A stretch of 64,000 bases of DNA from Owenia fusiformis (taxonomy: Eukaryota; Annelida; Polychaeta; Sabellida; Oweniidae), in assembly GCA_903813345.2 (NCBI GenBank), contig CAIIXF020000006.1, positions 31,168,024 to 31,232,023 of the forward strand. The letters are read 5' to 3'. Position 1 is the first letter of the stretch, and each line of letters opens with the position of its first letter. Position numbers and translations under genes: made by a program. Of this stretch, positions 19,201 to 61,600 are shown piece by piece. The notes under the pieces are model-generated. The model did no database searches. It was given only the letters and a program-made list of their open reading frames with translations, and was not told the origin of the DNA.

Positions 19201-22200
19201 TACATTTTGAAGTTTGATACTCTGGCGCCATTTTCATTAGCTTTTCCTCCTAGCATTATGGGACTTCAAACAGAAGTGAAAGCTACCTGCAAATGATATG
19301 TCCATTGCATGGAGAAAATAATTTTCTTTGGTTTAACGAAACAAATGAGTTAAAAATAAATTGTGTGGTTTTCTTTGTGTTTTTCATGCTCCGTCACAGC
19401 AGACAAATCTTTCGATACCAGCCTGTGTATAGGTCTATTGAAATTGAAATATTTGAAGTTGAATTATTTTAATCTCCAGCTAAAGCCTAAATGATTAAAT
19501 GTACACTTTGGTAGGTTATGAATTATAATGTAAGCAAAATTTGAAACGAAAATGTTTCTGTATTAGTGCTGTTATTATCCCATCGAACAAAGTTCGAAAA
19601 GCAGTCCATCCGTTCATGTGTCTGGGCAATAACTCAAATACTGGTTTACGGATTTCATTCAAATTTTAGAGGCTTATGCCTTATGGGTGTATAGGACTTC
19701 AGCTCGAGAAGGAATTTTCAATATGGCCACTGAATTCAACATGGTGGCCATTTTCGGAAAAAATATAATCTTTGATAACTCAATACTAGTGGATGGATTT
19801 GGATCAAATTTTACATGCTGTTGCCTGGGTACAAAAGAGCCTTGTTCAAGAAGACATTTTCAAGATGGCCACCATTTTAAAATATGGTGGCCATTTTTCG
19901 TAAAAAAAACATTGGATGGATATGGTTCAAATTTTACAGGCTGATGCCTAGGGACATAGGAGCTCTGCTCAAGAAGGGATTTTCAAGATGGCAGCTAAAT
20001 TTCAAAATGGCCACCATTTTTTCTTAAATGAACATAACTTTTGATAACTCAAATACCAGTGGATGGATTTGGTTCCAATTTTATATGCTGATGTTGAGGG
20101 AAAAAGGAGATCTGCTTCATAAGAAATTTCAAAGGCATCAGCTAAATTTCAAAATGGCTGCCATTTTTCATAAAAAAGGTAATCTATCTTTGATAACTCA
20201 AATACCATTGGACGGATTTACTTCAAATTTTATATACTGATACCTAGAGATAAAGGAGCTCTGCTTGAGAAGAAATTTTGAAGGTGGCTGCTATTTATCG
20301 AAATCTCCGCCATTTTTCATTAAATATGTAATCCTTGATGACTCAAGTACCAGTTGACGGATTTGGATTAAATTGTATATGCTGATGCATTGGGACATAG
20401 GAGCTCTGCTAAAGAAGAAATCTAAAGATGACAGCTGAATTTCAAAATGGCAACCATGTTTCATAAAAACATAATCTTTGATAATTCAAATACCAGTGGA
20501 TGGATTTGGCTCAAATTTTATATGGCCGCTAATTATCAAAACATGTTTTTTTCGTTGGGATTTGCTGCTCTGTGGAGTTGCTGTTTTTCTAGTTTTTTTC
20601 TTAAAGAAAGGCAATTATTTAGATTATGTCTGACCTTCATTTTTTCCTTTCTTTTTCCTGGGAGAGTACTGCCATTTAATTGTTGTCATCTGAGAATTTC
20701 ATCATATCCAATTTTCGCCTTGAATTTTTTATCAAGTGGCTGCAATTGAAATTCTCATAAAATTAGAAAATTTGGTCAAATTATGCCTATTTTTCATGAT
20801 TTTCTTACTTTTAAATGGTTGCAAATATTGTGTATTGTAGGTGCAATGGATTCTTATGTTGGTATTATTGAACTCTCAAGTGGTTGCAGTGCCTCCTTGT
20901 AGATCACTGATATTATATTTCAAACATTCATGTAAATGTTGCTGTGTATTGTAGGTGCAAATGGATTCTTATGTTGGTGCAAGCCTATTATTATTGAACT
21001 CTCAAGTGGTTGCAGTGCCCACTTGTAGATCACTGATATTATATTTCAAACATTCATGTAAATGTTGCTGTGTATTGTAGGTGCAAATGGATTCTTATGT
21101 TGGTGCAAGCCTAATATTATTGAACTCTCAAGTGGTTGCAGTGCCTCCTTGTAGATCACTGATATTATATTTCAAACATTCATGTAAATGTTGCTGTGTA
21201 TTGTAGGTGCAAATGGATTCTTATGTTGGTGCAAGCCTAATATTATTAAACTCTCAAGTGGTTGCAGTGCCCACTTGTAGATCACTGATATTATATTTCA
21301 AACATTCATGTAAATGTTGCTGTGTATTGTAGGTGCAAATGGATTCTTATGTTGGTGCAAGCCTAATATTATTGAACTCTCAAGTGGTTGCAGTGCCTCC
21401 TTGTAGATCACTGATATTATATTTCAAACATTCATGTAAATGTTGCTGTGTATTGTAGGTGCAATGGATTCTTATATTGGTGCAAGCCTATTATTATTGA
21501 ACTCTCAAGTGGTTGCAGTGTCCACTTGTAGATCACTGATATTATATTTCAAACATTCATGTAAATGTTGCTGTGCATTGTAGGTGCAAATGGATTCTTA
21601 TCAGTGCGTGAAATAAGGATTTTTTTAACCTAGACATTTTGGCAGGCCAGCCAGATTTTAACCAGCCATATCATTTTTTCTCAGGCCAATTTTTTGCAGC
21701 CTGTTTCTTACTTCTCTGGCCAAAAATTTCATTTTCCATATTTCTCCACAACCACTCTAAAATGAGATTTAGTTTAGTACAATATTAACAAAGTAAAACT
21801 AATTCCATTGCATGTCATGTATCATTCACTATACTGTACTTGATGACTTAACCAACAGCCTGGGTGTGTTGATTCCCCCCTAGATTCACCTTACAAAAAC
21901 ATGAGGAACATGTACATATTGATCAAACTAAATTGTACTGATTTTGGTCAGTTTAGAATTGCTCTCAGAAGCTTCAAGGTATTCAAAAACACATACTATG
22001 TTCACAGACTCCACTAACTTACCTTCTTCTAAGGCCACTGTATCGTGGCCTTCCAGTACAGATATATTCCTGCATGAACAACTGGTCATGTCGTAATCAT
22101 AAAATTTGAAATCATATGTCCGCCATTTTTCCACATCACAATTTGAATTGCGAGTTTTGGTCTTATTACCTCACCAAAAATCCCAAAACACACATAAAGT

Positions 22201-25200
22201 GATCAGTGTATTAGTTCACATCTTCTGGATCGCTAACTTAGAATTTACAGCCGGTTACTAATGTCAGAGACGTTAACGACATTTCGTCCAGTTTTCGAAC
22301 ATCGCCATTTTTCTTGGAGCCATTTTGTTTTAATTTTAGACGAAATCCTGATGAAATCATGTCATATCTCATCAAGGAGCCGAGCTGGGTCCAGTTTGAT
22401 GAATGATTTATTTATCTGGCGATTTTTAGAATATTCAATAAATTTATGACGCCCCAGCCAGCTTTTTTAAAATAGAGTTCACAGTATTCAGATGAAATCC
22501 CCTCTAGCCAAGTATTGGCTAGAGACTCGAGTAACCACTAACAGACTAAAATTCAAGGTATATATTAGAGGTGTCACGGTCCAAATAAATTTCGGTACGG
22601 TACGGAACGGTACAAATGGTCTCGGGACACGATACTTTCGAGACAGGACGGGACAGAACATTAAAAATGATACAATGTCTGATGATGACAGTTTCACTTT
22701 CAGTTTCACTTTTCAAAATCATATTCAGAAATACGTCAATTAAAATCGAATATAAAGCATCTGCCGTGAATGTGATCGGCATTTCACATAGTCTGCATGG
22801 TGAACTATCACCAATTCGTTTACCTTGTGATATCGGAGTCCCAAAATACTTCCAAACTGCCGACTTTTTGGACTTAGATGCCGGCTCGATTTTTCAATTT
22901 CTTTTCTACATCCGGCATACTGATAATGCACTTGATTTGCGAACGACGATGAAGAAATGAGTCATCCATAGCCAATCAAAATCACCGTAATTTCAACAAA
23001 CAACAACAGCCAATCAAAAGTCACGTTATATCTTGGGCTTCAGTATGAAAACAAAAATATTTGAAATTTTTTTAAATCTTCAACAAAAGTCATGGAATAA
23101 GCCGAAATCGCGGGGAATTCGGAGGATTTCCGGACTGAAATGTGGGTTCTATTCATGGGCAATCTAACGAATGCCACAAATGTCTGGCAGGCCAAAATGT
23201 CTGGGTGTTTTTATCAAAACAAGCCATCTATAATTTTGTCAGGCCAATGGCCGATGTCGGATGTCTATTTTGCGCACTGCTTATGTTGGTGCAAGCCTAT
23301 TATTATTGAACTCTCAAGTGGTTGCAGTGCCCACTTGTAGATCACTGATATTATATTTCAAACATTCATGTAAATGTTGCTGTGCATTGTAGGTGCAAAT
23401 GGATTCTTATGTTGGTGCAAGCCTAATATTATTGAACTCTCAAGTGGTTGCAGTGCCCACTTGTAGATCACTGATATTATATTTCAAACATTCATGTAAA
23501 TGTTGCTGTGCATTGTAGGTGCAAATGGATTCTTATGTTGGTGCAAGCCTATTATTGAACTCTCAAGTGGTTGCAGTGCCCACTTGTAGATCACTGATAT
23601 TATATTTCAAACATTCATGTAAATGTTGCTGTGTATTGTAGGTGCAATGGATTCTTATGTTGGTGCAAGCCTAATATTATTAAACTCTCAAGTGGTTGCA
23701 GTGCCCACTTGTAGATCACTGATATTATATTTCAAACATTCATGTAGATGTTGCTGTGCATTGTAGGTGCAAATGGATTCTTATGTTGGTGCAAGCCTAA
23801 TATTATTGAACTCTCAAGTGGTTGCAGTGCCCACTTGTAGATCACTGATATTATATTTCAAACATTCATGTAGATGTTGCTGTGTATTGTAGGTGCAAAT
23901 GGATTCTTATGTTGGTGCAAGCCTATTATTGAACTCTCAAGTGGTTGCAGTGCCCACTTGTAGATCACTGATATTATATTTCAAACATTCATGTAAATGT
24001 TGCTGTGTATTGTAGGTGCAATGGATTCTTATGTTGGTGCAAGCCTATTATTATTGAACTCTCAAGTGGTTGCCGTGCCCACTTGTAGATCACTGATATT
24101 ATATTTCAAACATTCATGTAGATGTTGCTGTGCATTGTAGGTGCAATGGATTCTTATATTGGTGCAAGCCTATTATTATTAAACTCTCAAGTGGTTGCAG
24201 TGCCCACTAGTAGATCACTGATATTATATTTCAAACATTCATGTAAATGTTGCTGTGTATTGTAGGTGCAATGGATTCTTATGTTGGTGCAAGCCTATTA
24301 TTATTGAACTCTCAAGTGGTTGCAGTGCCCACTTGTAGATCACTGATATTATATTTCAAACATTCATGTAAATGTTGCTGTGCATTGTAGGTGCAAATGG
24401 ATTCTTATGTTGGTGCAAGCCTATTATTGAACTCTCAAGTGGTTGCAGTGCCCACTTGTAGATCACTGATATTATATTTCAAACATTCATGTAAATGTTG
24501 CTGTGTATTGTAGGTGCAATGGATTCTTATGTTGGTGCAAGCCTAACATTATTGAACTCTCAAGTGGTTGCAGTGTCCACTTGTAGATCACTGATATTAT
24601 ATTTCAAACATTCATGTAAATGTTGCTGTGTATTGTAGGTGCAAATGGATTCTTATGTTGGTGCAAGTCTATTATTATTGAACTCTCAAGTGGTTGCAGT
24701 GTCCACTTGTAGATCACTGATATTATATTTCAAACATTCATGTAAATGTTGCTGTGTATTGTAGGGTCAATGGAGCAAGAGATGGCTACTAGGACTCTTC
24801 AGATCCAGTCTAAGAGATTCTACCTGGATGTCAAACAAAACAGAAGAGGACGCTTCATCAAAATTGCTGAGGTCAGTAAAAAAGATAACCATCTGAACTT
24901 TGCTTTGAAGATTAAGAAAACCCTTGTAGTTTCTAATGAAAGCCCATAAAGGAATAGAATACTCCCACACCAATAATGCAGAAGGCGCAAGCCTTTATAA
25001 CAATCAATATATAGCCGTGGCCATCAGTCTATTGATAAGTAGACTTCTGAATATGAAAATAGATCATTACTTTTATATTGATTATGAAGCTGAGATATCT
25101 TACAGGTAGAAGGATTATTAAAGTATGATCTCATATTATTGAATGCTTATATGTGAGAATGACAGTTGAATACAACAGAGGTTACACTTACCATGTAGAA

Positions 25201-26017
25201 TAAATAAGTTGTTTTATTTTTAGTAGTATGTGGTCGAAAAAAAGAAAATTATGTACAATGTAAATTCACTTGAAGATAGTTGTTTAACCCAGAGGCCTAA
25301 AATTACTTTACGTTGAAATATATTTTTTATATTAAGATGACCAAGACATAATTTTGCTTCATAATCAAACATAGAAAGTTGTGTTTTTACTTACAGTTAG
25401 AAAACATTTTGATCCCCATGTTAAGGAATTGGACAATATTGGATTAAGAGACAGTAATTTAAGGTGCATGTTCCTTCACTCTCTCTTTAGGTCTTGTCAT
25501 TGAACAATGTGTACTTGTGTGTGTGTACAGTGCAAAATTCCCTGAAAATGGAGAAATATCCTTGATTATGTGCTGACAGGCGACATGGCATACGTTTCTT
25601 CTCAGTAGATTCCTATTATTTTCAGGTGGGAAGTGGTGGCAAGAAAAGTCGTCTCCTGTTAGCTATGTCTACAGCAGCTGAGTTTCGCGACCATTTAACC
25701 GACTTTAGCGAACATTACGCATCTCTTGGTAAATACCAGTTTGTCAGCATATTTAAAACTAATAAGACTGTTAATATAGACAAGTAAATTACATGATGAT
25801 GTCACATTTGTATTTGTTAAATGTATTCTTGCAATAAGTGAATCTTTGAAAGTACAGTATTTTCACCTATATACTGGAATTTTTTATGTTGTTTATAGGG
25901 CCTCCTAATCCAGAGAATGTGCCAGAAGATGGGAAACTAAAGAGTGAAGTTATGGTCAAGGACAATAGGCGCTACTATCTGGACCTTAAGGAAAACCAAC
26001 GAGGTCGCTTTTTGAGG
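10230..26017 (+). CDS. PURA: Pur-alpha-like protein, exons 1-5 (3' end not found)
   Basis: Five exons join in phase: 10230-10278, 12840-12905, 24765-24871, 25626-25728 and 25899-26017, giving 148 residues. All introns are GT-AG. The start ATG has a good context (CACCATG). Residues 1-46 are an acidic, Gly/Ser/Glu-rich leader. Residues 47-108 form a complete PUR repeat, with [18 protein letters not shown] and AAEFRDHL visible. A second PUR repeat starts near 125 ([17 protein letters not shown]) and is cut at the exon 5 donor (gtgagt). Pur proteins bind single-stranded purine-rich DNA and RNA and act in transcription and mRNA transport; they normally carry three PUR repeats. The rest of repeat II and repeat III should lie downstream, but I found no matching exon in 26018-43500; the assembly gap at 31913 is the likely place for at least part. 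Intron 2 is about 11.9 kb and holds a decoy splice-site array. Identification is firm; the gene model is incomplete. Confidence 0.9.
11213..12140 (-). mobile_element. retroelement C-terminal relic in Pur intron 1
   Basis: The minus-strand frame 12130-11543 reads [20 protein letters not shown], a CFLC...H...C knuckle, [20 protein letters not shown] and [20 protein letters not shown], then shifts frame to [17 protein letters not shown] (11648-11460) and decays further to 11213. This order is typical of the end of a non-LTR retroelement polyprotein common in invertebrates. At least two frameshifts make it a pseudogene. Confidence 0.8.
12906..14524 (+). mobile_element. LINE, 5'-truncated, reverse-transcriptase C-terminus and poly-A tail
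   Basis: A first frame (about 12925-13140) reads [19 protein letters not shown], the LINE motif after the RT palm. After a frameshift, 13128-14375 gives 415 codons with [20 protein letters not shown] and a C-terminal CKIC-x-H-x-C zinc knuckle. A run of more than 20 A ends the copy at 14524. The truncated 5' end lies right at the donor of Pur exon 2. It is broken and not autonomous. Confidence 0.85.
14697..15266. mobile_element. palindromic element, CACTGGTCA ends, 5-bp TSD
   Basis: Nearly full-length inverted arms start CACTGGTCAGTATCAAGC and CACTGGTCAACATCAAGC, flanked by AGTGT on both sides (14692-14696 and 15267-15271). No protein frame is present. Confidence 0.8.
16084..17509. mobile_element. 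palindromic element, CACCCTATG ends, 5-bp TSD
   Basis: Long inverted arms (about 16084-16345 and 17255-17509) begin CACCCTATGCAGACAGAGC and are flanked by CATAT on both sides (16079-16083 and 17510-17514). The middle holds a second hairpin (16340-16682, with tip near GGTGCGGAGC) and a tRNA-promoter-like segment. The arms give mirror-image short frames that are not genes. Confidence 0.8.
16681..16800 (+). mobile_element. possible tRNA-derived SINE head
   Basis: GGTTCGAGTC at about 16778 matches the RNA polymerase III B box, preceded about 70 bp upstream by a weak A-box-like TTTAGCAAATCGAACGCTCG. It cannot fold as a convincing tRNA by eye. It lies within the 16084 element. Confidence 0.35.
17511..19352. 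mobile_element. palindromic element split by nested insertions
   Basis: Left arm 17511-17672 and right arm 19196-19352 are inverted (TTTCGTTATATCAAAGAAAA against its complement, CTCCATGCAATGGA, TTTGAAGTCC). Between them lie the ATGTCACC element and a smaller palindrome at 19054-19196 with ends AAACTTTTTAATGGCACGAT. It directly abuts the right flank of the 16084 element. Confidence 0.7.
17673..19051. repeat. ATGTCACC element with expanded tandem core, copy 2
   Basis: Same ends as copy 1, with the first 38 bp doubled (17673 and 17711), a GGCGTCCGGCGGTTGG array at 17760-17825, and eight or more core units of 125-135 bp with TTTGACATTTGACCTTCAAT and TGACCTTCTCAAGGTCAAAA. It ends GGTGGTGACATTTTGTCATG, AATGCCTTGTT. 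Inserted in the palindrome 17511-19352. Confidence 0.82.
19590..20530 (+). repeat. ~140-bp diverged tandem units in Pur intron 2
   Basis: About seven units with TTTGATAACTCAAATACCAG, TGGATGGATTTGG, TCAAATTTTATATGCTGATG, GGAGCTCTGCT and AATGGCCACCATTTTT. Short open frames across them are period effects. Family not recognised. Confidence 0.75.
20841..24764 (+). repeat. 126-bp tandem array of reiterated 3' splice sites (Pur intron 2)
   Basis: About 18 copies of a unit of 114-126 bp, split into two blocks by the element at 21602-23279. Every unit ends TGTTGCTGTGTATTGTAG (or the GCATTG variant) and the next starts GTGCAAATGGATTC. Acceptor-like AGs end at 20840, 20954, 21080, 21206, 21332, 21458, 21583, 23392, 23518, 23641, 23766, 23892, 24015, 24140, 24265, 24390, 24513 and 24638. 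The last, at 24764, is the real acceptor of Pur exon 3, which starts GGTCAATGGAGC, close to the unit start GTGCAATGGATTC. Units differ by few substitutions, so the array is young or homogenised. Confidence 0.95.
21602..23279. mobile_element. DNA transposon inserted in the Pur array
   Basis: The insertion splits one array unit, so its limits are clear: CTTAT (21597-21601), then CAGTGCGTGAAATA, and at the other end TATTTTGCGCACTG followed by CTTAT (23280-23284). This gives imperfect terminal inverted repeats and a 5-bp target duplication. Subterminal inverted motifs rich in GGCAGGCCA and AGACATTTTGG flank the core. No transposase frame is seen, so it is non-autonomous. CAG/CTG ends with a 5-bp duplication would fit a hAT5-type element (inference). 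A stretch at 22570-22640 with GGTGTCACGGTCC and repeated GGTACGG looks like the end of another, nested element. Confidence 0.8.
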
Positions 26018-27877
26018 GTGAGTTGATTTAAATTTAATATGCTGATGCCTAAGGGACAAATAATTATGCTCCAGATATTTTTTGTTTTTTTTAACATATT
26101 ATTTATTTCCTACATAAACAAAAAATACACAAAATATCTACTACCAATCGCCATAGGCATTCTAGGTAGTTTAGTGGTCAAAACTTTAGTGACTAATGCG
26201 GAGTTATGCCTCATGACCATAGGACCTCTACTGAAGAAGCAATTTATGATATGAATTCATATCAAATCATGGGTGTAGATTTTGCCAAAAGGAATTTTAC
26301 TTAATTCTAATGCATGTTAATATGTTCAAAATGATGAATAATTTGATAATGTTTTACTTGATGGTAGGATATGCTACTCCTGGAGTTGCTGTTTTTCTAC
26401 TTTCGATTATGATGCCATATTCTTATAGATACCATTTTTTTGTTTTTTCATTGTATTACCTATTTTTTCCAAATATTTAATAGCTCTTTGTATCATGATA
26501 CCACACTTCAAATAACCAACAGATAGTGACCTCTTTTCAACTACATAAAGTTAATTTCTCACAAAAGTGAATCAAACATTGAATCCAGGACAATTTGTTT
26601 TCGAAAGCAATATAGAGAAAAATGTCTATATTTTTTCAAATGAAACTGTTACCATTCAAAAGATGATCTTTAGATCATTAGAAACATGTGTTCAGTTCAG
26701 TTCGCCATATCGATACCAATCCTTTATTATGAAATGACAATATTTAGCAGTTATGTCCCTATCATTGAATATATGCCTAAGGTCTGTCACCAATATAGCC
26801 CGAGCTTGCTTGTTGTATTACATACTTTTATATCATGGCTACGTTATATCAATGACGCCACGTGTCTGTGTGCGAGTGAAATTAGGAAGAAATGAAACAT
26901 GACGTACCAATGACGTCATAAGATTGTCATGGTAAAAAGTTTGGCGGCTATACAGGAATATATAGCCGACCTTCAGCTCCATTGACTTCAATACAAATGC
27001 ATCGCTGGGTATGTAATACTATAAATTATTGAATGATTTGAAGTGCAATACAGGACATATTCTGCTCGAGAAATTCTGTATTGTGTGATCTTAGGCCAAT
27101 GCATTTTATTTAGGAGATAATCCCTAAGAAATATTTTGTATTCTTTGTATTGCTACTTTGTATTGCTACTGTCCCCTCCGCACCAATATTTTCTGTATTG
27201 CTATGGAAATGGTCAAAGGAGACAATCTCAGTTGCAATACAGGTTGGTTCAGCACAAGAACTGACCAATCAGAGGGCTTCATTTTACAGATCATGTGATA
27301 AATTATCTTATCAGTCAGTTCAAAGTAACCTAAGATTTAAAATCTATGAAATACAATATAAATTCTTCTCATGGTAATGAATGATATATCAATTTTAAGA
27401 TTTAAGACAGAGAATGAGAATTAACTCAAAAGATACTAAAATTGGTTTGTAAACAGGGTGGGGGTCGGTCCATCTTTAACAATGTGGATTGTCGTAGAAT
27501 TCATATGCCACACAGCTGGTGCCAATGGGGAAATGTCAATATCATTTTTTTTTGTTAGTGGCTTAACCTGTTACTGTGATTTAAAAAAAACCAGACTATT
27601 TTGTTGCTAAATAAGAAAATATTGAAGGTAGATTTTATTGATGGAATAATCTAATAATCTGCATGGAAAACATGTGATATCACCCATGGGGAAAGGACAA
27701 TGCATTATAATTTATAATTTAAGAAATTATTAAAAAATGTATGTCTTAAAGTCTGTAAATTTTTCATACATCATAATACGTTAATATATATGTTAATATG
27801 CCAGGTGGGTGTGTAATCTGTAAATATAGAGCAATGCTCTATGTGAAATGTCATATGAGTGTTATGGTACTGCGTGA
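24872..27877. other. Pur exon 3-5 introns and the Pur/tubulin interval
   Basis: Apart from the two Pur exons at 25626 and 25899, no coding or structured repeat was recognised. 26380 shares GGAGTTGCTGTTTTTCTAC with 20575 and a shorter form with 38400. TGACGTCA at about 26911 is a CRE-like word of unknown meaning. Confidence 0.4.
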
Positions 27878-29627
<1,750 letters not shown>

Positions 29628-29648
29628 CTAAAAGAAAAAGAAGTGAAT

Positions 29649-29885
29649 TCAACCTTCAATATTTGGGATTCTTTTAAGCAGAAGTGTTTCATCGCATTGC
29701 TCTTTGATCCATGAAATGCATTCTTTTAGTACAGGGAAAGTATTTCTTGTGAATTCTCCTGCCTTGTTGCCTTGGATTTGGACACTCCCAGTTGATACAA
29801 ATATTGTTATTTTGAACAAGCGCTCTTCATCATTGTTTGTTTTAACATCTAGCGATATATTGTCATATTTTTCTACAAGTTAATT
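29649..29885 (-). mobile_element. retroelement ORF fragment
   Basis: Minus-strand open frame with FKITIFVSTGSVQIQGNKAG, then FPVLKECISWI, ending at a stop near 29649. The pattern (fast beta-strand, TG-x-QG, hydrophobic helix) resembles the N-terminal or ORF1 part of non-LTR elements in invertebrate genomes. It directly abuts the alpha-tubulin exon 2 acceptor side and is opposite in strand to the next LINE. Confidence 0.5.
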
Positions 29886-31905: not shown

Positions 31906-31912
31906 ATCCTTA

Positions 31913-32412
31913 NNNNNNNNNNNNNNNNNNNNNNNNNNNNNNNNNNNNNNNNNNNNNNNNNNNNNNNNNNNNNNNNNNNNNNNNNNNNNNNNNNNNNNNN
32001 NNNNNNNNNNNNNNNNNNNNNNNNNNNNNNNNNNNNNNNNNNNNNNNNNNNNNNNNNNNNNNNNNNNNNNNNNNNNNNNNNNNNNNNNNNNNNNNNNNNN
32101 NNNNNNNNNNNNNNNNNNNNNNNNNNNNNNNNNNNNNNNNNNNNNNNNNNNNNNNNNNNNNNNNNNNNNNNNNNNNNNNNNNNNNNNNNNNNNNNNNNNN
32201 NNNNNNNNNNNNNNNNNNNNNNNNNNNNNNNNNNNNNNNNNNNNNNNNNNNNNNNNNNNNNNNNNNNNNNNNNNNNNNNNNNNNNNNNNNNNNNNNNNNN
32301 NNNNNNNNNNNNNNNNNNNNNNNNNNNNNNNNNNNNNNNNNNNNNNNNNNNNNNNNNNNNNNNNNNNNNNNNNNNNNNNNNNNNNNNNNNNNNNNNNNNN
32401 NNNNNNNNNNNN
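31913..32412. other. assembly gap (500 N)
   Basis: Exactly 500 N. The round number suggests a scaffold gap of nominal rather than measured length. Any open frame reported across it is an artefact. Missing Pur exons or the alpha-tubulin first exon could be hidden here. Confidence 1.
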
Positions 32413-49704: not shown

Positions 49705-50291
49705 CAGGGTGTCAAATAAGTCCCGTCCCCCTGCTACATCTAAAATCTTAACAGAAGGTACCTAGTGTGATATACCATTGGAAAGATCATCCAAAGTTAT
49801 GTTAACTCACCAACTCTCAAGTATTTTGAATGAAATTTTTATGATGTCTTTTAAAATTAACGTGCCCTCCTTTAAGTAGCTTTTTTGCGTCAAAATGACA
49901 AGGATATGACCTCAGAAATACATCAAAAAGTTAATCTTTTTCACATTCCACTTGTTACAAAAAGGGTTTCACCACTCTCCTTGCACCTCTATTTTCTACA
50001 CATCTAACCCTATCCAGAAATAGGTTAAATTCATCGCCATAAACATATTTAGTCATATTTTGGTCCCGTGACCTTTCTTATACACGATTTTTAAAATCGT
50101 GCCAAATACGCCAAATTGTCATATTTCTAGGCATATGGTAACCTCAATTGATACAATGTAAAATTTCTGAGACGTGTCAAATATATGCCAATCAACGTGA
50201 CTTTGGAAGATCTTTCCAATGATATATCACACTTGGTACCAAATATCTTGGTTTTGGCTGTAGAGGGGGACGGGACTTATTTGACACCCTG
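49705..50291. mobile_element. MITE, CAGGGTGTC ends, TA TSD
   Basis: TA plus CAGGGTGTCAAATAAGTCCC on the left; GGGACTTATTTGACACCCTG plus TA on the right. Inverted arms share AGATCATCCAAAGT or relatives. No gene inside. Confidence 0.8.
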
Positions 50292-51825
50292 TAGATGTAA
50301 CATAGAAATATTATCATAGTTAATGCCATTTGTACGGTTCCTTCCATTTGAAATTAGTGAAGGTAAGGTTGATCATTACATGGAGTCGTGTCATGAAACT
50401 TACCAGAACTTTAATTCATACACGATTACCACCAAAAAAAGTTGGAATATTAAACGTTTATGACCAACAGTGTTTAAAATATGGTTGCTACTGTACAAAA
50501 TTGTATAGCATTGTTGATAAGGATATATGTCACGATATAGGTTTTATTCAATTAAGTGCAAGGCAAAGATAACTACAATGTATCTTACAAAAGTCTAAGT
50601 CCAAAAGTAGCACAAAATAAATAACCCAAAAATCGCTAACCAAGATCGTGACACTGATGTTGATAAGGTATCTGACACACTTTCAAAGGTCAAGTAAAAC
50701 ACTATTCGTATCTTTGTCAATTACTTTACAATGTTAAAGAAAACGCCCCATTTTTCAATTCTATGTTAAATCTTGACCAGTTTCGATTTTGACATCATGC
50801 TTGATATCACGCGAATTACCACCAGTGATGTTTGCGTTTAAAGATATGCCTGATTTGCACCATATTGGTCCCTGGTCCTTATACCTGAGTATAACTGACT
50901 TTGATTCAGTTGCAAAAGCAACAAAACTTGTGACAGTTTCAATGACTTGCTGTATTTTGTTCACTCTTTGGATAATTTGTCCCGGGAATTTGGTAAGGAA
51001 TTACAGCTAGCCCCCTCGCATACAGATTTCGAGGTTCCAATATCACGCAAGAACGTTTCTTGTGTTAATGGAAATTACAGAGTTGCGGTTGGGTGTATAA
51101 GCTTACTTAAAACATTTTTTATCAACATCAACACTGTATTATTTAAGGAATATAGACCGAGTTTAAATGATTTATGGGGTAATATATAACCGAAGATTTT
51201 ATTCTGTTCATTATTAAAAGACCGAAATCGCGTAGCGATTGAGGTCTTTGGCAATGGCCAGAATAAAATTTGAGGTCATATACTGTAGCGACATAAATCA
51301 TAAAATCTAGGTCTTTGTTACATCTAATATGATAAACAGCAAAGAATCACGACTATTTGCATTTAAGAATTTTAGCGGTCATACATACTCCAATATAGAC
51401 CAGTAAATCAATTGCTCTAGCTATTGTGACGTTACGTATCATATTAGGATTTTCTATTTAAGAACTTATTAGTCTATATTTGGGAGAATTTAAACATTTT
51501 TCACCCATTTTTGCAGATGGATCTTTTTGGTAGATATTGTATTTGAGATTGTAAGGAATAGATTGGTGAGTCTAGTTCAATATCCTAGATGCGAGCAGAA
51601 ATAATCTTGATTTACGTCATTAAAAATTCAAAATTCAGTCAAACTGTTGTCATATTCGGAATCTACATGTAAAATTCCATCTAGAAATGTGGTTTTGAAA
51701 AGATTTTATCAACTTTGAAAATCTAATTTTCTTTGAAAATGTGACTTCTAAGTCGGGGAGATTCCCCATAGACCCCATGTTGTAAAGTCACAAAAAGTGA
51801 AATATCTTGTGTTGGGCATATGATA
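50292..51825. other. gene-free stretch downstream of ALDH1A
   Basis: Overlapping frames at 50789-51010 and 50947-51189 are compositionally protein-like but end in stops without splice sites; possibly a decayed transposon protein. AGACCGAAATCGCGTAGCGA at about 51220 is a GC-rich palindromic word. 51580-51780 resembles 6810-7010 (AGTCGGGGAGATTCCCCATA), a dispersed repeat. Confidence 0.4.
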
Positions 51826-52016
51826 TATAGGTTATTTACTGGGAAGGATTGAATATGGGTTTTATTCCGAGGGACAATATGATATTGACCGAAGGGTAAT
51901 ATGATATTGACCGAGGGAGCGCAGCGACCGAGTGTCAATATGATATTTCCCAAGGTCAATATCATATTTTCCGAGGAATGAAACCCATATTCAATCCCGA
52001 CCAGAAATAACCTATT
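51826..52016. mobile_element. short palindromic element, TAGGTTATTT ends
   Basis: TAGGTTATTTACTGGGAAGG against the inverse of CCAGAAATAACCTA, with GAATATGGGTTTTATTCC mirrored and ACAATATGATATTGACC boxes inside. Likely TA-flanked MITE. Confidence 0.6.
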
Positions 52017-52112
52017 TATTCCATAATACATTCCACTAAAATGTTACATTTTGAAAATGCTTTTATCAATTAGGTAAGGTTAAAAATAACAGGAAAACCA
52101 AAAATAGGTTAG

Positions 52113-52235
52113 TACGTTCCAATACGATTTTTTCCCGGGGACAATACGATTTTTTCATGTGATACGCTCCAATACGATTTTTTCCCGGGGACAATACGAT
52201 TTTTTCATGTAATACGATTCAATACGATTTTTATT
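52113..52235 (+). repeat. 50-bp direct repeat, about 2.4 copies
   Basis: Unit TACGTTCCAATACGATTTTT plus TCCCGGGGACAATACGATTT and TTTCATGTGA, repeated at 52163 and partly at 52213. Non-coding. Confidence 0.85.
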
Positions 52236-52640
52236 CCTTCATAATTCCCTTGGAAAACAGTAGTATTAGATCTATGGAATAATTTCTTTTATTATGCACC
52301 TCATTAAAATACTCAAATCTGATTGGTTAAGAGCTGCAGGGTCTATTGCCATACGTGGCAGCAAGATCTCGTTCTATCCAGTATTGAAGCAACGAGATCT
52401 CCAACCATCCCGTATACCAGAATACCTATCCTCGAAAAAATAATTTCGACGAGTCCAATTGTCGATGACGTCATTTTCTTAGAATCTCTTCCATGTTGAA
52501 TTTGAGACGAATGCGAGGGAGAAATGATTTGCGTGATATGAGAGAAGGGGATTTCTATTCAATTTGCTTGTAATTTTGTCACCCCTAGATCTGATTCTGC
52601 CTTTAATATCTGGTCTGTTGATTAATGGCATAGCTTGTTA

Positions 52641-54712
52641 CACGCCTTACCATCGACAAGGTACAGTCACGTGACAGTGACAAAATATACCGTAGTACAC
52701 TTTTGATGTACTATGTCACTATTAACTGATTTTAAGCAAAGACTATGATGTAGGTTTGATGCAGGTTTTCAAAAATAAATTTGAGGAATACATAAAGCAT
52801 TTCATGTTTGATTTCGCGTGTATTCGATTTCAAAGACATTTATTTTTCTAATTACGTTAAAAGATCTTCGAGCAGTGCTCGATTTTTTTCGTTGTAACAT
52901 GGACGTATATCATCAGTCTACCCATACAATTGTTTGGTTGGAAAAATGTTGTTTTTTACACATTTCCTTTGATAATTTTCTCCATTGACGTCTCAGAGTG
53001 TCGAATATTTTTATGAGAATGTGTTTCTCTAAACTACACAGTTTAAGACGGGTGAAGATTTAATAAATATTCATGCATTTGGTATAATTTAAAAAATCAG
53101 AAATGTACGTTGTCAACTCACAGTGTATGTTGTCCCTGTAATTGAAATTCAACGAACATGCTACTGTATCCCTAGTACAGATAAACAGGTAAAAGTGATT
53201 TTTTCGTTGAATGCTATTTTATTTTATGAAAGTGTTAATATGGTGATTAATATGTGACCATGGCGTGTTATTTTCCGACCTCTTTGACCACTTGGCGTCG
53301 GTACGTTACGTTATGTTTAGTTGCATGGAGAGATCTATACTAGCTAATCCAAGATGACTTTCAAAATTTATGCTACAGGGTGTCCCGAAAGTATGGGCCC
53401 CCTAGGCAGACATATACCAATGTCTCCATAGTATGTGTCATATATCATTTTAAAGCTCATCCAAAGTTACATTAATTTGCCGAGTATCATGGTTCAACTC
53501 ACAAATGGAAACAAGTTACAGGAATTTCAAAAGTTAGTGTTTGGCCAAAATTAAAGTCAGTTTTACACCAAAGCAATAGTCGGTGTGTCTCCTTAGCCGC
53601 CATGTTAACAGCAGCAATACTTTCCATATATGACCTTAAACAGGCTTCTAATAGGGATATGGCGTTTTGTTATCCTCATAAAACCCTTTTAAGGCATAAG
53701 AAGAGTTTCCTTGGAGTATCTACCCTAAACGTCATCTTTTTAGAACTCAATATCCATCCTATATTCGAGAATAGCATCTATATTTTCTGTCACATTCAGG
53801 TCAGGGCTGTTTCCAGGATACTGAAATCTTTTTGGCAAAACTCTAATTTTTAAAATGCCTGTTACTTTTTACCATTTGAACCATCATATGTAACTTTGGA
53901 TAAGCTTAAAAATGATATATGACACATACAACTATGGAGAAATTGGTATATGTCTGCCTAGGGGGGGGGGCAAACTTTGGGACACTCTGTATATCTGGAA
54001 AGTGCAGAAGTTCAAAAGCCAGGTTATGGAACACAAAAAAAGAATTAGTAACATTGAAATTTAATCATATCAATGACAATTTTATGGATTAACGGACAAA
54101 ATATTAGAGTAAATATATCTGATATGCCTATCATGATTATCACTTTATTATCAAATATGTTCCTTCTATTACACGTACATTATAGCATTTCATTCACTGT
54201 AAAATTAACTGTGAATTGAGATCTGTAAGGCCAATGTGACAACATACATTCGAGTTGACAACATACATTATCTATTTTTCGTAGTAGCATCCAAAGTAAA
54301 AGGCGGTTTTGCATTAACTCTGGATGTATATTTGTATACTTATCTTAAGTTGTGTTAGTCGTAGTTTGGCTGTTATTTGCATAGCAAAACAAAAATTAGA
54401 GAGAATTTTGCGAAATTCAGTCAGGATTTAGAGATCCCTGACGTACTGGGTAGATCTATAACAAGATGTTGAAGTTGCTGAGGATCATTTGAAGTAGATA
54501 TGCACATTTGCAACTTAATTACAAATCGAATGCAACAACTACCTGATGATGAACTGACACAATATTGATCAAATCAATGCTAGTTCCTGCCTCGCTTCTT
54601 CATTCTAGAAAATGGCGATCTAAAATGGCGGAAATGACATAGTACATCAAAAGTGTACTACGGTATATTTTGTCACTGTCACGTGACTGTACCTTGTCGA
54701 TGGTCAGGCGTG
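52641..54712. mobile_element. palindromic element, CACGCCTTACC ends, 5-bp TSD
   Basis: Ends CACGCCTTACCATCGACAAG and its inverted counterpart are flanked by TGTTA on both sides (52636-52640 and 54713-54717). The subterminal sequence GGTACAGTCACGTGACAGTG is mirrored. Terminal bases resemble those of 40943-42734, so the two are probably related families. A TA-flanked element is nested at 53376-53989. Confidence 0.78.
53376..53989. mobile_element. MITE, CAGGGTGTCC ends, TA TSD, nested
   Basis: TA plus CAGGGTGTCCCGAAAGTATG on the left; the right end reads CAAACTTTGGGACACTCTG plus TA, preceded by TATGTCTGCCTAGGGGG. It lies within the 52641-54712 element, so it arrived later. Confidence 0.78.
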
Positions 54713-54717
54713 TGTTA

Positions 54718-55740
54718 TAGACATCAAGATAATTAAGGAATATGCTAAATATATAAGCACTAGTGCCAAAGGGAAAGGACTAAAAGTTGTAATGGAACTT
54801 ATCAAACTCTAAGTGTCTGATACCCCCTTGGCCGCCACCATTCAAGAACCAATATCACAATCCAGGACCAGTCTAAGACCAAGGCCGGGGCATTTCATTC
54901 ATACTGAAGTCATTACATAGATTAAAACATCACAACGACGTGTTGTATTCGTAAACTAGCCGGTGAAAATTATTACAAACGAAGGTGGTAAATCTGTCAT
55001 CTAAGCTGGGGTTTTCCCTCCTCTTTGTTGGCCTCTGTTGGCATTGACTATCCTTAAAGCCCGGGCCTGTAGCAGACATTAAAATCGTACCGAACGAAAA
55101 AAAGACAAATGCCCGGATGTTATGTGATACTAAAATACACCTAGATATAATGCCTAACAAAAAAAAACTTAGCCACTTGCACTTCGTTCTAATACTATTT
55201 GATGTGTGATTTTGGGATAAAATATTATTATATACATTCAATTATTTCAGTGTTTTCCTGAAATTTATATGGAAATAGGAAAATGTTTGTGTTGAAATTT
55301 CAGATGATAAAATAGGGTTGGCATTTTTCAGATTGCTTATAACTCCTTACCTCCGTTTCTTGTTTCCTTAAGGGTCTTAAATAAATTTTCAAAAAATAAA
55401 TTTGCATTTCTATATAAATTTATATATATCATCAAAAACCAAAATACCTTTTAATGCAATAAAACACATATAAATTCCCGAGGACTCCAATTGAGGTGTG
55501 TTTTAGTATCGCCCCCGGATGTTGTTGTAATTCGATAATGAAAAATTCTTGATTTTCACATATTTTGATTTATTACAAATGATTAATAAACATTTGAAGG
55601 TGGAGAACAGCATAAGATCGATGAAGTTTATACAGCGATTCCATTGGGATATACCATATGCGATACAACCATCAATCTGGTAGGTTGAACTCCAATCAAA
55701 AATATTGTTCGTCAATTTTCAAATTTTCTTCCATTTTTGC
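54718..55740. other. gene-free stretch
   Basis: No recognised gene. A minus-strand frame at 54930-55241 has no family signature. Confidence 0.4.
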
Positions 55741-55746
55741 CATAGG

Positions 55747-57281
55747 CAGGCGCGTATCGTGGTCATTTTGCAAGGGTACGCCCCTGTATGTGGATGAATA
55801 ATGTGTGAAGATGAATGCGATTTTTGGCGTATGATTTTTCGTGCAGACAGCTACCATAGGTCTTATATTTGGCCAAACACCCTCAATGAGAGTTTGTTTT
55901 CTCTCTACAGAAGTAATACACTCCCTTAATGAATTTGCATCGATAATGTTGTCATAGCTGGGGCCATTTCTGCAATAGACGTGGTATTAATTAATTGATT
56001 AGTAACCCGTGAATTACAGGCCCCCAAAAATAAAAACACTTCACCAGACGAAAATAGAGAAAGTCGTCTGCACAAGGCCGTGCGAATTTGGAAATGCTCT
56101 ATCAATGGCTTAAGGTCTCATGGAAGTTAACAGGAAATGACAAAACAAAAAATGACAAAGCCATGCTGGATTTTGAAAATTTTTTGAACCAAGATAACAG
56201 AGTTCTGTTTGGACCTCCAGTCAGTTTAACTAGTTCCAAATATCATTTACATGACCAGGAACACAATTGAAATGGTCAGAATGACCATAAACATGATAAA
56301 ATAACCTTTTAAGCCCTCTGAAAATGTGACTGAAAAATAGCTAAAAGTAGGTGCTCAGGAAAGGTCAATGAACAGAATCATTTGATTTTTTCAGAATATG
56401 TGTCCAATATATTGCTCTAAATGACACAATCTTTGAAATTTTAAAAAATCGTCTGAAACAATAATGGCTGTAGTAAAAAGGAAAATAGATCGATTTTCAA
56501 TTCAGTTTTTTTCAATTTTTTCTTTTTCTAAGAATGATATCAAATTTTTTTGAATTGTATCATTTAGAGCAATATATTGGGCACATTTTCTGAAAAAGTC
56601 AAAATATTCTGTTCAGTGACCTTTCCTGAGCACCTACTCTTAGCTATTTTTTAGTCACATTTTCAGAGGGCTGAAAAGGTTATTCTATCATGTTTATGGT
56701 CATTCTGACCATTTCAACTGTGTTCCTGGTCATGTAAATGATATGTGGAACTAGTTAAACTGACTGGAGGTCCAAACAGAACTCTGTTATCTTGGTTCAA
56801 AAAATTTTCAAAATCCAGCATGGCTTTGTCATTTTTTGTTTTGTCACTTCCTGTTAACTTCCATGAGACCTTAATCAATGTAGTTAAAACTAAATCCACT
56901 TATCGTACGGTTTAAATGATTAAATTACTTATTACATTCAATAATGTCAAGTGATACTCAGGTTTTTATACGTACTGAATTTGCTGATTTTGAGCGTGTA
57001 CTCTGCCGGGATTCGCCATCATCCCCATACGGCCTTGAAGAAGCGTACAAGAATGACGCAACTCTTTGAATCAAAAATTTGAATCTTTGAATCACGAAAA
57101 CAGTGAATGACAATGAGGGAATCGAGAACTTATTAGTGTTAATACACTTGTACAACAAAGGTTTACACATCATCAAAGAAAATAACAGTAAAATACTGAA
57201 TTTCATGTTTTTTTCAAAATATTTTTTCAAATTCAAACAGTACGCCTGGGCGTATTTTGCGTACATGACGACACGCGCCTG
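55747..57281. mobile_element. DNA transposon, CAGGCGCGT ends, ATAGG TSD
   Basis: Ends CAGGCGCGTATCGTGGTCAT and the inverse of CAGGCGCGTGTCGTCATG are flanked by ATAGG (55742-55746 and 57282-57286). No transposase frame. The 5-bp duplication and CAG/CTG ends recall the element at 21602. A second palindrome is nested at about 56100-56880. Confidence 0.72.
56100..56880. mobile_element. nested palindromic element
   Basis: Two inverted arms of about 270 bp or more, each containing GGCTTAAGGTCTCATGGAAG or its close relative, CAAGATAACAGAGTTCTG, and AATATATTGCTCTAAATGA. The same 54-codon peptide is read from both arms in opposite directions, which shows the arm symmetry and not a gene. Confidence 0.75.
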
Positions 57282-57363
57282 ATAGGCCCAGGTTAAGTAC
57301 TGAAGTAATCCATACATATAATTCATATGCATGGATTACTACAGTACGTAACCTGGGCCTATG
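57282..57363. repeat. hairpin ATAGGCCCAGGTTA
   Basis: ATAGGCCCAGGTTAAGTACTG pairs with CAGTACGTAACCTGGGCCTAT around a short loop (ATAATTCATATGCAT). It directly abuts the element at 55747 and may be the remainder of the target element. Confidence 0.7.
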
Positions 57364-58636
57364 ATATTACCCAAGCCTTTCTAGGCTAGTCAAGTTATTT
57401 ACTCCTGTAGCCAAAATTTACCAAGTAGGGGGTCTATTTTTACCTTGGACGCGGGTTCATTTTTATAACGATACGGGGGAGGAGGGTTGAGAAGGGCTGG
57501 AGGAGGTTTGCACAACAGAAATAGTTTCAAGGAACCAATCAAATATAGTATGTGTATTCTCAAATAGCTAGTATAAATGTGCGATTGATTGCTAGCGCAA
57601 AAATAGTCATCTTTCTGGGATTGGGGTTTGTTGATCTTGCAGAAATGGGGTTGTTCCTGGCTAGGGATTTGTTTTATAACGAAAGGGGTCAAGGGAGATG
57701 GTTGCACGAACCCCATGAACTCCTCTCGCTTTGCCCATGTAGATCTGAGCCAGACATTTTCCAATGGAAAAACTGGGTGATGTACTATTGACAAGACACA
57801 CTGCTTGTTAATGTACAATATGCAATGATATATAATAAATATTATTATATTTATGTGTTTGTTCCTGGTATTACAATTTGTATTTCTAGTATGTTTCCAA
57901 ATAAATAAGAAATGAATAACGAAATGAAGCAAAAACAAAATTCCTTATGCAAACTGTGTGTGATTACGTAGAATATCGAATACCCTTGAGAAGTTTCGAT
58001 TGCTTATTCAATTGATTCCATTTAGTATAACAAAACAACAGGAATCTTGAAATATCTCACATTAATTGTATGTACTGTTATCCATCATATTGGTGACTGG
58101 TGTCCAATTCAACTCCAAGTAAGATACATCAGTTTTATGAAGTAATCTTCGGAGAAATGCATCTTCGTTCTACAAAAGATTAAATCATGTCACACTCGTG
58201 ATACATCACATCACCTGACATTATTGGGCAAAAATTAAAAGAGAGTTGACAAAATTTTGAGCACATTTCTACATCAAAATAACCAACAAAACACCACATT
58301 TGTGTGTAAGTTATTCACTATTTATTACAAGTAAGTGTTTAGGTTTGCATTGAACACAATATTTGTGTTTGATGGCTAAGGGTTTTTTCCATTAGAGCTT
58401 GTCTGGCCCAGTTCTGCATTTGAAGCATTCTCAGGCATGGGGTGTTTTAAAATACGAAATTCCAACTAATATGAAGTAATAAAATGTAAATTATTGGCCA
58501 TTTTTATCTAATATTGATAATTACATGAACCAGTTTTTAAACGATGGCACAAAATAGGTGCAAACAACACAGTATTAAGAACAAAACATTTGTTTTGACA
58601 TTTTGCTTTCAAATATTTTATGATGTTATCTTTCAG
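57364..58636. other. gene-free stretch before RUNDC1
   Basis: A 179-codon minus-strand frame (57938-57399) is low-complexity and comes from a directly repeated 60-bp motif (TTTATAACGATACGGGGG and TTTATAACGAAAGGGGTC). Promoter and first non-coding exon of RUNDC1 may lie here but were not located. Confidence 0.4.
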
Positions 58637-58692
58637 AAATCATTTAATTCTGCCCTTATAAAAGTGAGTTTCATAACATTGATGATTGCAAT

Positions 58693-61600
58693 ATGATGGA
58701 AGAAGTGAATATGAGTAATATTGGCACTGATGAGAGCTGTGACAATTTGGATTATGACAGTTTTGATGATCAGAAGTTTGAACCTCCAGCGGAACGTTGG
58801 GCTCCTCTTGGTGCTAGTGCAAGCCCAGGACCAAGTGGAAATGAAGAATACAACAGGTAGCAATCTCATGCATATTAATATCATGACAGTTTGAAATGAA
58901 ATTGAAAATGTTAAAGCTCTTAAAAGCTAGTCAGAAAATAAAACTATAACCACACACAAGACTTTCATGTCATAAACAGTCGTCCACATTTTACCAATCG
59001 AATATACTCTAACTTTACACACTGTGTTCCACCAGTACATGTAGTTGCTGATAACTTTTGTAATGATTTGAATATAAAGCTTATGTATCTGATTTTATAT
59101 ATTTTTACCAGGTGTGCAGTTTAAACAATTTGTTACAAAACTATATGGAAATCTTACTATCTTACATCTTTTCGAAAATCATGAGTAAAACTTAGTTTAC
59201 TATGTGTTTGTAATTTGAATTTTAAAATATATTTAGCTCAACCATATTTCATATTCTACAAAGATTTGTCAATAAATGAAGATGTTTATATACATTGCGT
59301 AGGACAATGTTGTGCACAACAGCGCACATAGCGGAAGACTGTCCATGGCTTGTGAAAGTCCTGTGTTATCAGTGCATACAATTGGCCCAGTGTCAGTGAC
59401 CCAACCTAATATTAAGATTATGTAATCAGGAAGTTCAATAAGTTTATGCAAAAATACTGTGAAATTTAGGCTAAGTGATACAATGTATAATGTCAGCCTC
59501 TATGAAATTTTCACATTAAAATAATTGTCTATCCATCTGCCAACAATTTTTGAACAGATGAAAACTGCAAATTGTCTAAACCAACAAATGTTTATATCCA
59601 TTTCAATGGGGGTCTTATGCAGCTTATGCTGGTAATTACACCATTAGTCCTGAAGGCCATTGCTCAAAAATATTTGTTACTAGAGAGTTGTAAAAGTAAC
59701 GAGTAAGTAAATGAGATCATTAATATCCATTCCAAAACAAAAATAAAAGGTAACGTCCCCCTTGATCATTAACCCCCACCATTAAAAGCTTTTTCAGCAA
59801 TCAGTGATGTTAATCATCTTTATTTCTAGTGATTCTGTTCTCTTTATCTCTAGTAATCCTATTGTTCTTTTTATCTCTAGTGATCCTATTGTTCTCTTTA
59901 TTTCTAGTGATCTTATTGTTCTCTTTATCTCTAGCAATCCTATTGTTCTCTTTATTTCTAGTGATCCTATTGTTCTCTTTATCACTAGTAATCCTATTGT
60001 TCTCTTTATTTCTAGTATTCCTATTCTTCTCTTTATTTCTAGTGATCCTATTGTTCTCTTTATTTCTAGTGATTCTGTTCTCTTTATTTCTAGTGATTCT
60101 TTTGTTCTTTTTATCTCTAGTGATCCTATTGTTCTCTTTATCTCTAGTGATCCTATTGTTCTCTTTATTTCTAGTGATCCTTTTGTTCTTTTTATCTCTA
60201 GTAATCCTATTGTTCTCTTTATCTCTAGTGATCCTATTGTTCTCTTTATCTCTAGTAATCCTATTTTTCTTTATTTCTAGTATTCCTATTCTTCTCTTTA
60301 TTTCTAGTGATCTTATTGTTCTCTTTGTCTCTAGTTATCCTATTGTTCTCTTTATTTCTAGTATTCCTATTCTTCTCTTTATTTCTAGTGATCCCTTTGT
60401 TCTCTTTATCTCTAGTGATCCCATTGTTCTCTTTATTTCTAGTGATTCTGTTCTCTATTTCTAGTGATCTTATTGTTCTTTTTATCTCTAGTAATCCTAT
60501 TCTTCCTTTTATCTCTAGTGATCTCATTGTTCTCTTTATTTCTAGTGATTCTGTTCTCTTTATATCTCTAGTGATCCCATTTTTCTCTTTATTTCTAGTG
60601 ATCCCACTCATACAGATCAACTACAAAAACTTGAAGAGGAACAAGAGCAGCTAAACTCCTCCCTACTAGCCCTAACTACCCACTTTGCACAGGTCCAGTT
60701 CCGCCTGAAGCAGATCATCACAGCTCCCTCAGACGATAAAGAGGTATATTTAGACTTTTTGGGTGAAAGGCTATATTAATAGTTTCACTGTCCAAAATGA
60801 TGCTGTTTTCTTTACAGTTGTTCAGAAGTTAGGTCCAATTTATATCTAGGTCAAAATAAAAAATGTTGCAATTAATTGGTAAGAAAAAATACTCGTGGTT
60901 AGAGATGTGATCTAAAATAACTTCACTTCCCATACCATACCTAGTGATTTGGTATAGAGTTAGCCCAGAATAATGTTTATAATCCTTGCCTTCTGCCATA
61001 AGAAGGTCTTGACCCATCTTTTATATATCTGAGTGTCTAAAAAAAGGTCAAGTTTTGTGCTGTATTTTCAGAGTCTCCTTAAGGAATTGGAAGAGTTTGC
61101 ATTTAAAGGCATTCCAGATGTACGGGGGTCACATATCCAAGATGCCCTCAACTTAGAAGAATTAGTAAGACCTTTCTTTTGGTACTATACATATTTAAAG
61201 GGGGTGGCCCAAATACAGATCTGCTCAAAAGTTTGACACTTTGTGTGGGAATCACAAATTCAGACAAGTGCATTTCTGAACATGTTTAGATCATTTTACA
61301 CAAGAAAATTTCCCCAATTCACAAGTGCCACAAAAGTTTATAACTGTTTCATGCATCCACCAGGCTATCTACATCTACATGAAATTTAATAAAATGTTAA
61401 GGAAATAACTCTGAATGAAACTCAGATACATTATGATTGATTGTCTTGTTGTTTCTATCTTGTGTTTGTATTCATCAGTTCACATTCTTGTGAATTTCCT
61501 TGTAGAGTGACAAAGAGCACGAAAAAAAGATAACGGAACAACGCAAGAAACAACAAGAACTAATTGCCCAACTCAAATCACAGCTTCAAGATCTTGAGAG

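What the first reader, a model, noticed from the sequence alone, without database searches (positions are those of the whole stretch)
20841..60598. Two unrelated introns in one window share the same architecture: junction-derived arrays ending at the true acceptor
The two arrays differ in sequence and unit length but share one design: the unit spans the 3' splice site plus the first exon bases, and the array extends only upstream into the intron. Two cases in 64 kb suggest a recurrent mechanism in this genome, for example replication slippage or re-copying biased to splice junctions, with selection tolerating the intron side only.
Basis: inference. Interest (0 to 1): 0.85.

Follow-up and report, generated by a model that had tools for sequence, protein, structure and literature searches.

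The report
Tandem-copied splice junctions ("mirages")
In this animal genome short stretches around intron-exon borders have been copied several times in a row, leaving look-alike splice sites beside the one that the gene's reading frame needs; this was known from a few lancelet genes, and here it turns up at both kinds of border in several housekeeping genes.

Summary
Both arrays are real and end at true acceptors (24764|24765, PUR-alpha gene; 60598|60599, RUNDC1-like gene); joined exon frames support both. Array 1 (18 units, about 125 bp) fits only half: its unit is the 3' end of a dispersed MITE-like element plus the last 45 bp of the intron, and the supposed exon bases are element bases. 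"Extends only upstream" follows from where the right edge lies. Recurrence held up: in 40 gene-body loci (CCT, myosin, proteasome) 15 arrays straddle 318 junctions, 7 acceptors and 8 donors; 11 of the 15 carry 25-97 exon bases. So it is not acceptor-specific. Junction bias is unsettled: 15 against 6.2 expected if repeat units fall at random, but two other controls show no excess, and 0 of 11 aldehyde dehydrogenase exons had one. The phenomenon has a name: "mirages", reported from amphioxus Adh3, globin, troponin C and PGBD5 genes. Twelve large contigs speak against amphioxus (its chromosome number recalled). New member of a known kind; the frequency, and decoy sites that score like the true one, are the interesting part.

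The parts
10230..10278 (+). PUR-alpha-like gene, exon 1 (from ATG)
   Evidence: joined frame
12840..12905 (+). PUR-alpha-like gene, exon 2
   Evidence: joined frame
20719..20826 (+). inner part of a MITE-like copy upstream of array 1 (limits read by eye)
   Evidence: aligned with 18 of the 20 fetched genomic copies
20841..21601 (+). array 1, left part: units = 3' end of the element (about 80 bp) + last 45 bp of the intron
   Evidence: TRF
21602..23279 (.). inserted element inside one unit of array 1 (ends CAGTGCG/CGCACTG, direct repeat CTTAT at 21597-21601 and 23280-23284), probably a DNA transposon
   Evidence: sequence
23280..24764 (+). array 1, right part; last unit ends at the true acceptor AG at 24763-24764
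   Evidence: TRF
24765..24871 (+). PUR-alpha-like gene, exon 3 ([25 protein letters not shown]...)
   Evidence: PF04845 E 4.9e-15; frame
25626..25728 (+). PUR-alpha-like gene, exon 4
   Evidence: PF04845 E 1.5e-9; frame
25899..26017 (+). PUR-alpha-like gene, exon 5
   Evidence: frame
58693..58856 (+). RUNDC1-like gene, first coding exon seen
   Evidence: joined frame; gene name recalled, no family hit
59817..60604 (+). array 2: 29 units of about 27 bp carrying pyrimidine tract + CTAG + exon-like first bases
   Evidence: TRF; units
60599..60743 (+). RUNDC1-like exon downstream of array 2 (SDPTHTDQLQKLEEEQEQ...), true acceptor AG at 60597-60598
   Evidence: frame
61072..61163 (+). RUNDC1-like next exon
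   Evidence: frame

Best explanation
Both arrays are 'mirage'-like minisatellites: local tandem duplications whose unit reaches a splice junction, grown by slippage or unequal exchange. In array 2 the unit spans the junction itself. In array 1 a short MITE-like element lies 45 bp upstream of exon 3; a duplication joined the intron's last bases (TTGTAG) to an inner element position with similar letters (GGTGCAAATGGA against the exon start GGGTCAATGGA with the G of AG, read from the sequence), and the element-end + intron-tail piece was then amplified. The extra copies lie in the intron. Only the last copy is attached to the rest of the exon and its downstream donor, so pairing of the two sites across the exon (exon definition) would pick it, although decoys score about as well. 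Shown: anatomy, element origin of the array-1 bases, frames, occurrence at donors and acceptors elsewhere. Inferred: the growth mechanism, the mode of site choice, the order of events.
For: Array 1: 68 bp of the unit match a dispersed repeat (535 first-look candidates, 40 scored). Of 20 fetched copies 18 were aligned: 17 of 18 end in GAGATCACTG, 8 of 18 show a clear matching start (4 CAGTGATCTCC, 4 CAGTGTTCTCC) and 12 of 18 hold GTGCAAATGGATT. The 17 whole units average 95-97% identity to each other, save the left-edge one at 89%; in 17 of 18 decoys the last 46 bases match the true tail at 44 or more. Array 2: no match outside the array; each unit averages 75-90% identity to the others, with recurring variants. 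Recurrence: pieces of exon copied beside the exon, e.g. 5 copies in L043 and L036, 22 in L053, 25 in L037 (sequences). Decoys: 20 of 20 found at the seven sampled acceptors keep AG and 18 score at least as high as the true site; at donors 24 of 24 (L037:2900), 21 of 22 (L053), 3 of 3 (L059), 1 of 1 (L031) score at least as high (found by likeness to the true site, so kept sites are favoured). Precedent: amphioxus mirages are reported not to disturb splicing (PMC3087553).
Against: No transcript data: use of the last copy rests on frame and homology. In both window arrays the true site scores highest (11.8 against at most 11.3; 9.4 against at most 8.7), so strength may also matter there. Some donor arrays have decayed decoys: L037:936 2 found, 1 with GT, none as strong; L034:8727 and L036:2610 none at that threshold; L067's second copy has lost the GT. 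A second set of 11 aldehyde dehydrogenase exons showed none. No related genome was on hand to show the pre-array state. The exon bases of array 2 could have been taken from the array rather than given to it.
Confidence: 0.78

Rival explanations
1. No junction bias at all: the genome is full of minisatellites, some fall on junctions by chance, and selection removes those that break exons. The two window cases are chance hits noticed after the fact.
For: Arrays cover 24,750 of 224,636 sampled bases, and edges touched are not in excess of an array-shift null (11 against 15.7 acceptors, 12 against 15.8 donors; stricter sets also below the null). Local copies at 37 of 319 junctions against 57 of 330 intron positions. 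Exon bases in the 15 arrays range from 3 to 97, not clustered at the junction. 0 of 11 in the second set.
Against: When each array is reduced to one unit and re-placed, 15 are seen against 6.2 expected (P 0.0005), 12 against 4.4 with at least 10 bases on each side, 10 against 4.4 with at least 2.5 copies (P 0.006). The two controls without excess count every copy of intronic arrays, and the local-copy control also counts tandem myosin exons (L054, L055).
Confidence: 0.4
2. A junction-directed process makes the arrays, for example DNA copying or repair guided by nascent RNA.
For: Two- to threefold excess in the unit-placement test; both window arrays stop within about 10 bp of the junction.
Against: The 15 sampled arrays reach 3 to 97 bases into the exon with no pile-up at the junction; array 1's other breakpoint is in a MITE-like element; the units keep intron sequence, which speaks against a spliced template.
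Confidence: 0.1
3. The arrays are kept by selection as splicing signals, adding pyrimidine tracts, branch sites or back-up acceptors.
For: Array 2 units are pyrimidine-rich; the true site ranks first in both window arrays.
Against: Donor arrays are as common as acceptor arrays; array 2 units vary in length (22-27) and in frame to the exon.
Confidence: 0.07
4. Assembly artefact (false tandem expansion).
For: Arrays of near-identical units are error-prone; not testable here without reads.
Against: Units carry private variants, and a 1.7-kb element with its own direct repeat sits inside one unit of array 1.
Confidence: 0.03

Closest known systems
Amphioxus 'mirages' (Adh3, globins BflGb6 and BflGb9, troponin C, PGBD5): PMC3087553, section 16 and passages read; PMC3902484, passages read
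   Same: minisatellite-like tandem copies of an intron-exon boundary, at 5' or 3' ends of exons; units of 10-160 bp in the globin paper's account; many copies keep AG/GT
   Different: a different animal if chromosome number is a guide; more units (18, 29, up to about 20 in samples) than the 6 and 3 given for BflGb6; one array has a transposable-element end in its unit; several housekeeping families hit at once; no RNA or polymorphism data here
Human interferon-induced gene 6-16 (IFI6/G1P3) minisatellite with multiple splice donor sites (Cuin and Porter 1995; only the title seen, in the reference list of PMC2572611)
   Same: a minisatellite whose units act as splice sites
   Different: donor side, one gene; anything further would be recall
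[quoted passage not shown]
   Same: a tandem duplication crossing an acceptor, splicing signals inherited from the parent junction
   Different: a tandem duplication that made a new intron; here many copies, and new introns were not looked for
Earthworm metallothionein genes (PMC12783039, passages read)
   Same: annelid intron minisatellites, and exon-4 duplicates not represented in the transcript
   Different: the passages place the repeats in intron 1 and do not describe them as spanning a junction

Membership tests
mirages (amphioxus type) | tandem array of several units | tested here: met
   array 1: 18 units, array 2: 29 units
mirages (amphioxus type) | unit spans the intron-exon boundary and holds exon bases: array 2 | tested here: met
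   6-9 of the first 12 exon bases in each of 29 units; elsewhere in the genome 3-97 exon bases in 15 arrays
mirages (amphioxus type) | unit spans the intron-exon boundary and holds exon bases: array 1 | tested here: not met
   bases after the AG are element letters; array 1 works like a mirage but is an element-end/intron-tail array
mirages (amphioxus type) | occurs at both exon ends in the genome | tested here: met
   7 acceptor and 8 donor arrays at 318 junctions
mirages (amphioxus type) | inner units alike, edge units diverged | tested here: inconclusive
   array 1 left-edge unit 0.889 against 0.949-0.970 for the other 16 whole units, right edge not diverged; array 2 shows no such pattern
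mirages (amphioxus type) | normal splicing of the mRNA | not testable with these tools
   no transcript data
mirages (amphioxus type) | length polymorphism, somatic instability | not testable with these tools
   one assembly, no reads
MITE as source of array 1 | dispersed short copies with inverted ends | tested here: met
   39 scored matches outside the window array; 17 of 18 aligned copies end in GAGATCACTG, 8 of 18 show a matching start; copies without a matching start may be truncated or diverged
MITE as source of array 1 | target-site duplications, a transposase source | not tested
   not measured
RUNDC1 | RUN domain in the same gene | tested here: inconclusive
   no PF02759 match near the window, but the gene may run on beyond the window and weak exon matches can be missed; the name rests on recall

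The most novel reading that the evidence does not exclude
Splice junctions are preferred sites of tandem amplification in this genome. In a highly variable species the introns of the two homologous chromosomes may differ so much that pairing and unequal exchange succeed mainly at exon ends, so repeat units that contain a piece of exon expand most. Some four to five in a hundred junctions would then carry arrays, many with near-equal decoy sites: a standing natural experiment on how the spliceosome picks one site, and a supply of raw material for new introns.
Probability: 0.25. Interest if true: 0.75.

Novelty: new member of a known kind. Interest (0 to 1): 0.55.

Why it matters
Mirages were reported from a few amphioxus genes. 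If about one junction in twenty carries one in an unrelated animal, they are a general feature of some animal genomes, they will mislead gene prediction, and they give many in-vivo tests of site choice: 29 acceptor-like sites, or 22 to 24 near-equal donors, in a row, with (if frame and homology are right) only the one nearest the rest of the exon used.

Tried and rejected
Rejected: that array 1 copies exon bases (element letters). Rejected: that the arrays are acceptor-specific. Tried without gain: naming the RUNDC1-like gene by domain; naming the species: 12 large contigs (477.5 of 498.3 Mb, summed from contig lengths) fit Owenia fusiformis, which has 12 chromosomes (PMC9539403, passage), but this is not shown, and PMC11371463 (passage) did not help; that amphioxus species have more chromosomes is recalled. 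Two controls gave no junction excess; one search is also swollen by tandem myosin exons (L054, L055).

Rows left out: searches list 60 + 92 + 29 = 181 exon matches; I listed 161 in the script and 160 lay in fetched loci; the rest were isolated, single-exon-like or outside the regions chosen. In one search the match L037:7299-7776 (stops inside) was dropped, leaving 318 junctions; without L054 and L055, 282. One search printed 27 exons with partial copies; besides the 13 named in the report these are 10 in L055 and 2 in L054 (tandem myosin exons), the dropped L037 match, and L053:9416 (one copy of exon positions 35-150 just upstream, not explained). Exon ends are approximate (HMM ends refined by splice consensus); nine ends were set by hand after reading the sequences; without that the count (L054 and L055 dropped) was 16 against 5.9. 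Five of the 15 arrays have about two copies as TRF cut them (L031, L034:6868, L036:2607, L053:740, L067). Two copies (L028, L029) of the 20 were left out of the alignment. In one search two positions (L064, the L037:2723 donor) were one or two bases off; they were put right and their scores rerun.
Full report
What was checked. The window is animal DNA by its genes (498 Mb genome; window = G000:C6:31168024-31232023). TRF finds the two arrays at the stated places. Array 1 runs from 20841 to 24764 in the intron before exon 3 of a PUR-alpha gene; array 2 runs from 59817 to 60604 across the end of an intron of a RUNDC1-like gene (name recalled; no domain hit). Both downstream acceptors are supported by reading frame: the joined exons give uninterrupted proteins, and two PUR-alpha exons match PF04845.

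Array 1. Nineteen AG|G sites (18 decoys and the true junction) are spaced by 114-126 bp except where a 1,678-bp element with ends CAGTGCG/CGCACTG and the direct repeat CTTAT splits one unit. A genome search with three units showed that 68 bp of the unit are a dispersed repeat (535 first-look candidates, 40 scored). Twenty copies were fetched and 18 aligned: 17 of 18 end in GAGATCACTG, 8 show a matching start (CAGTGATCTCC or CAGTGTTCTCC), and 12 hold GTGCAAATGGATT. The array unit is the end of this element (about 80 bp) followed by the last 45 bp of the intron. The likeness of the element and the exon start (GGT, CAA, TGGA in the same order) may have helped the first duplication; that is inference.

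Array 2. Twenty-nine units of 22-27 bp, cut at CTAG, share 6 to 9 of the first 12 exon bases; units 23 and 29 share nine. No copy outside the array was found in the genome (that search skips simple repeats, so this is weak). Some variant units recur, as expected of minisatellite turnover.

Is it recurrent? I searched the genome for CCT, myosin-head and proteasome exons and fetched 40 gene-body loci, 224,636 bases, 160 of the 181 exon matches. Each exon was compared with its own locus. Pieces of exon starts recur upstream in L036 (5), L037 (2), L043 (5), L049 (2), L064 (5) and L066 (4); pieces of exon ends recur downstream in L031 (1), L033 (1, weak), L034 (1), L037 (12 and 25), L053 (22) and L059 (2). 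The other 14 of the 27 printed rows are told in Tried and rejected. The sequences were read. Counting arrays with at least three bases on both sides of a junction gives 15: 7 acceptors and 8 donors, of 318 junctions. A second set of 11 aldehyde dehydrogenase exons in 10 loci had none; at this rate that is not surprising, but it does not confirm the rate.

Is it biased to junctions? Three tests disagree. (a) Shifting whole arrays within loci: no excess. (b) Local copies of 50-bp segments: acceptors 20 of 159, donors 17 of 160, exon middles 17 of 160, introns 57 of 330; fewer at junctions than in introns (Fisher P 0.045). (c) Reducing each array to one unit, because a true junction is counted once however many decoys it has: 15 against 6.2, P 0.0005; 12 against 4.4 with ten bases each side; 10 against 4.4 with at least 2.5 copies, P 0.006. 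I think (c) is the fairer model, but it treats arrays as independent and ignores unmatched exons. The arrays reach 3 to 97 bases into the exon, so breakpoints do not pile up at the junction.

How the gene copes. At the seven sampled acceptors 20 of 20 decoys found keep AG, and 18 score at least as high as the true site; at four donors (L031, L037:2900, L053, L059) 49 of 50 do. These decoys were found by likeness to the true site, which favours kept sites. At the other donors decoys are decayed or were not found (L034, L036, L037:936, L067). In both window arrays the true site ranks first by a small margin. Strength alone therefore hardly explains the choice in the sampled arrays; position does: the site needed by the reading frame is the one next to the rest of the exon and its other splice site. 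That is what exon definition predicts (established concept, recalled). It is inferred here, not shown.

What is known. The same thing is described in amphioxus as 'mirages' (PMC3087553, passages and section 16; PMC3902484, passages): tandem copies of intron-exon boundaries in Adh3, two globin genes, troponin C and PGBD5, at either exon end, reported not to disturb splicing. The listings of searches, of which I opened only a few papers, showed no title or abstract reporting such arrays outside amphioxus, apart from related ideas (6-16 minisatellite with donor sites; potato tandem duplication; earthworm metallothionein intron minisatellites; human tandem repeats that modify gene structure, PMC2812944, listing only). 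Most subscription papers are not in that library.

Verdict. Whether junctions attract the arrays is open and can be settled by one annotated scan.

Noticed in passing
L053 (G000:C4:31700300-31710200): A proteasome-type exon end plus donor is copied about 22 times over some 7 kb of the following intron, with other repeats between the blocks.
   Followed up: partly
L053, oriented coordinates 9294-9605: Positions 35-150 of the exon match at 9416-9605 recur once at 9294-9409, 92% alike; not explained.
   Followed up: no
L055 (G000:C9:37986301-37995000): A run of tandem myosin-head exons (HMM positions about 25-83), probably alternative exons rather than a mirage.
   Followed up: no
L066 oriented 2090-3889, L057 1013-2134, L068 3156-3321: Further arrays whose units look like splice sites with exon-like sequence, away from the matched exons; not checked against a gene model and not counted.
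   Followed up: no
window 17763-18888 and 63292-63992: Two regions holding GGTTGGCGTCCGGC repeats followed by a TTCAAATCTGACTTTAGATTTGACATTTGACC-type array; similar arrays appear in L039 and L053.
   Followed up: no
window 13107-14372 and 11543-12148: Reading frames with zf-RVT domains (PF13966), retrotransposon remnants in the PUR-alpha introns.
   Followed up: no
window 31913-32412: A run of 500 N.
   Followed up: no
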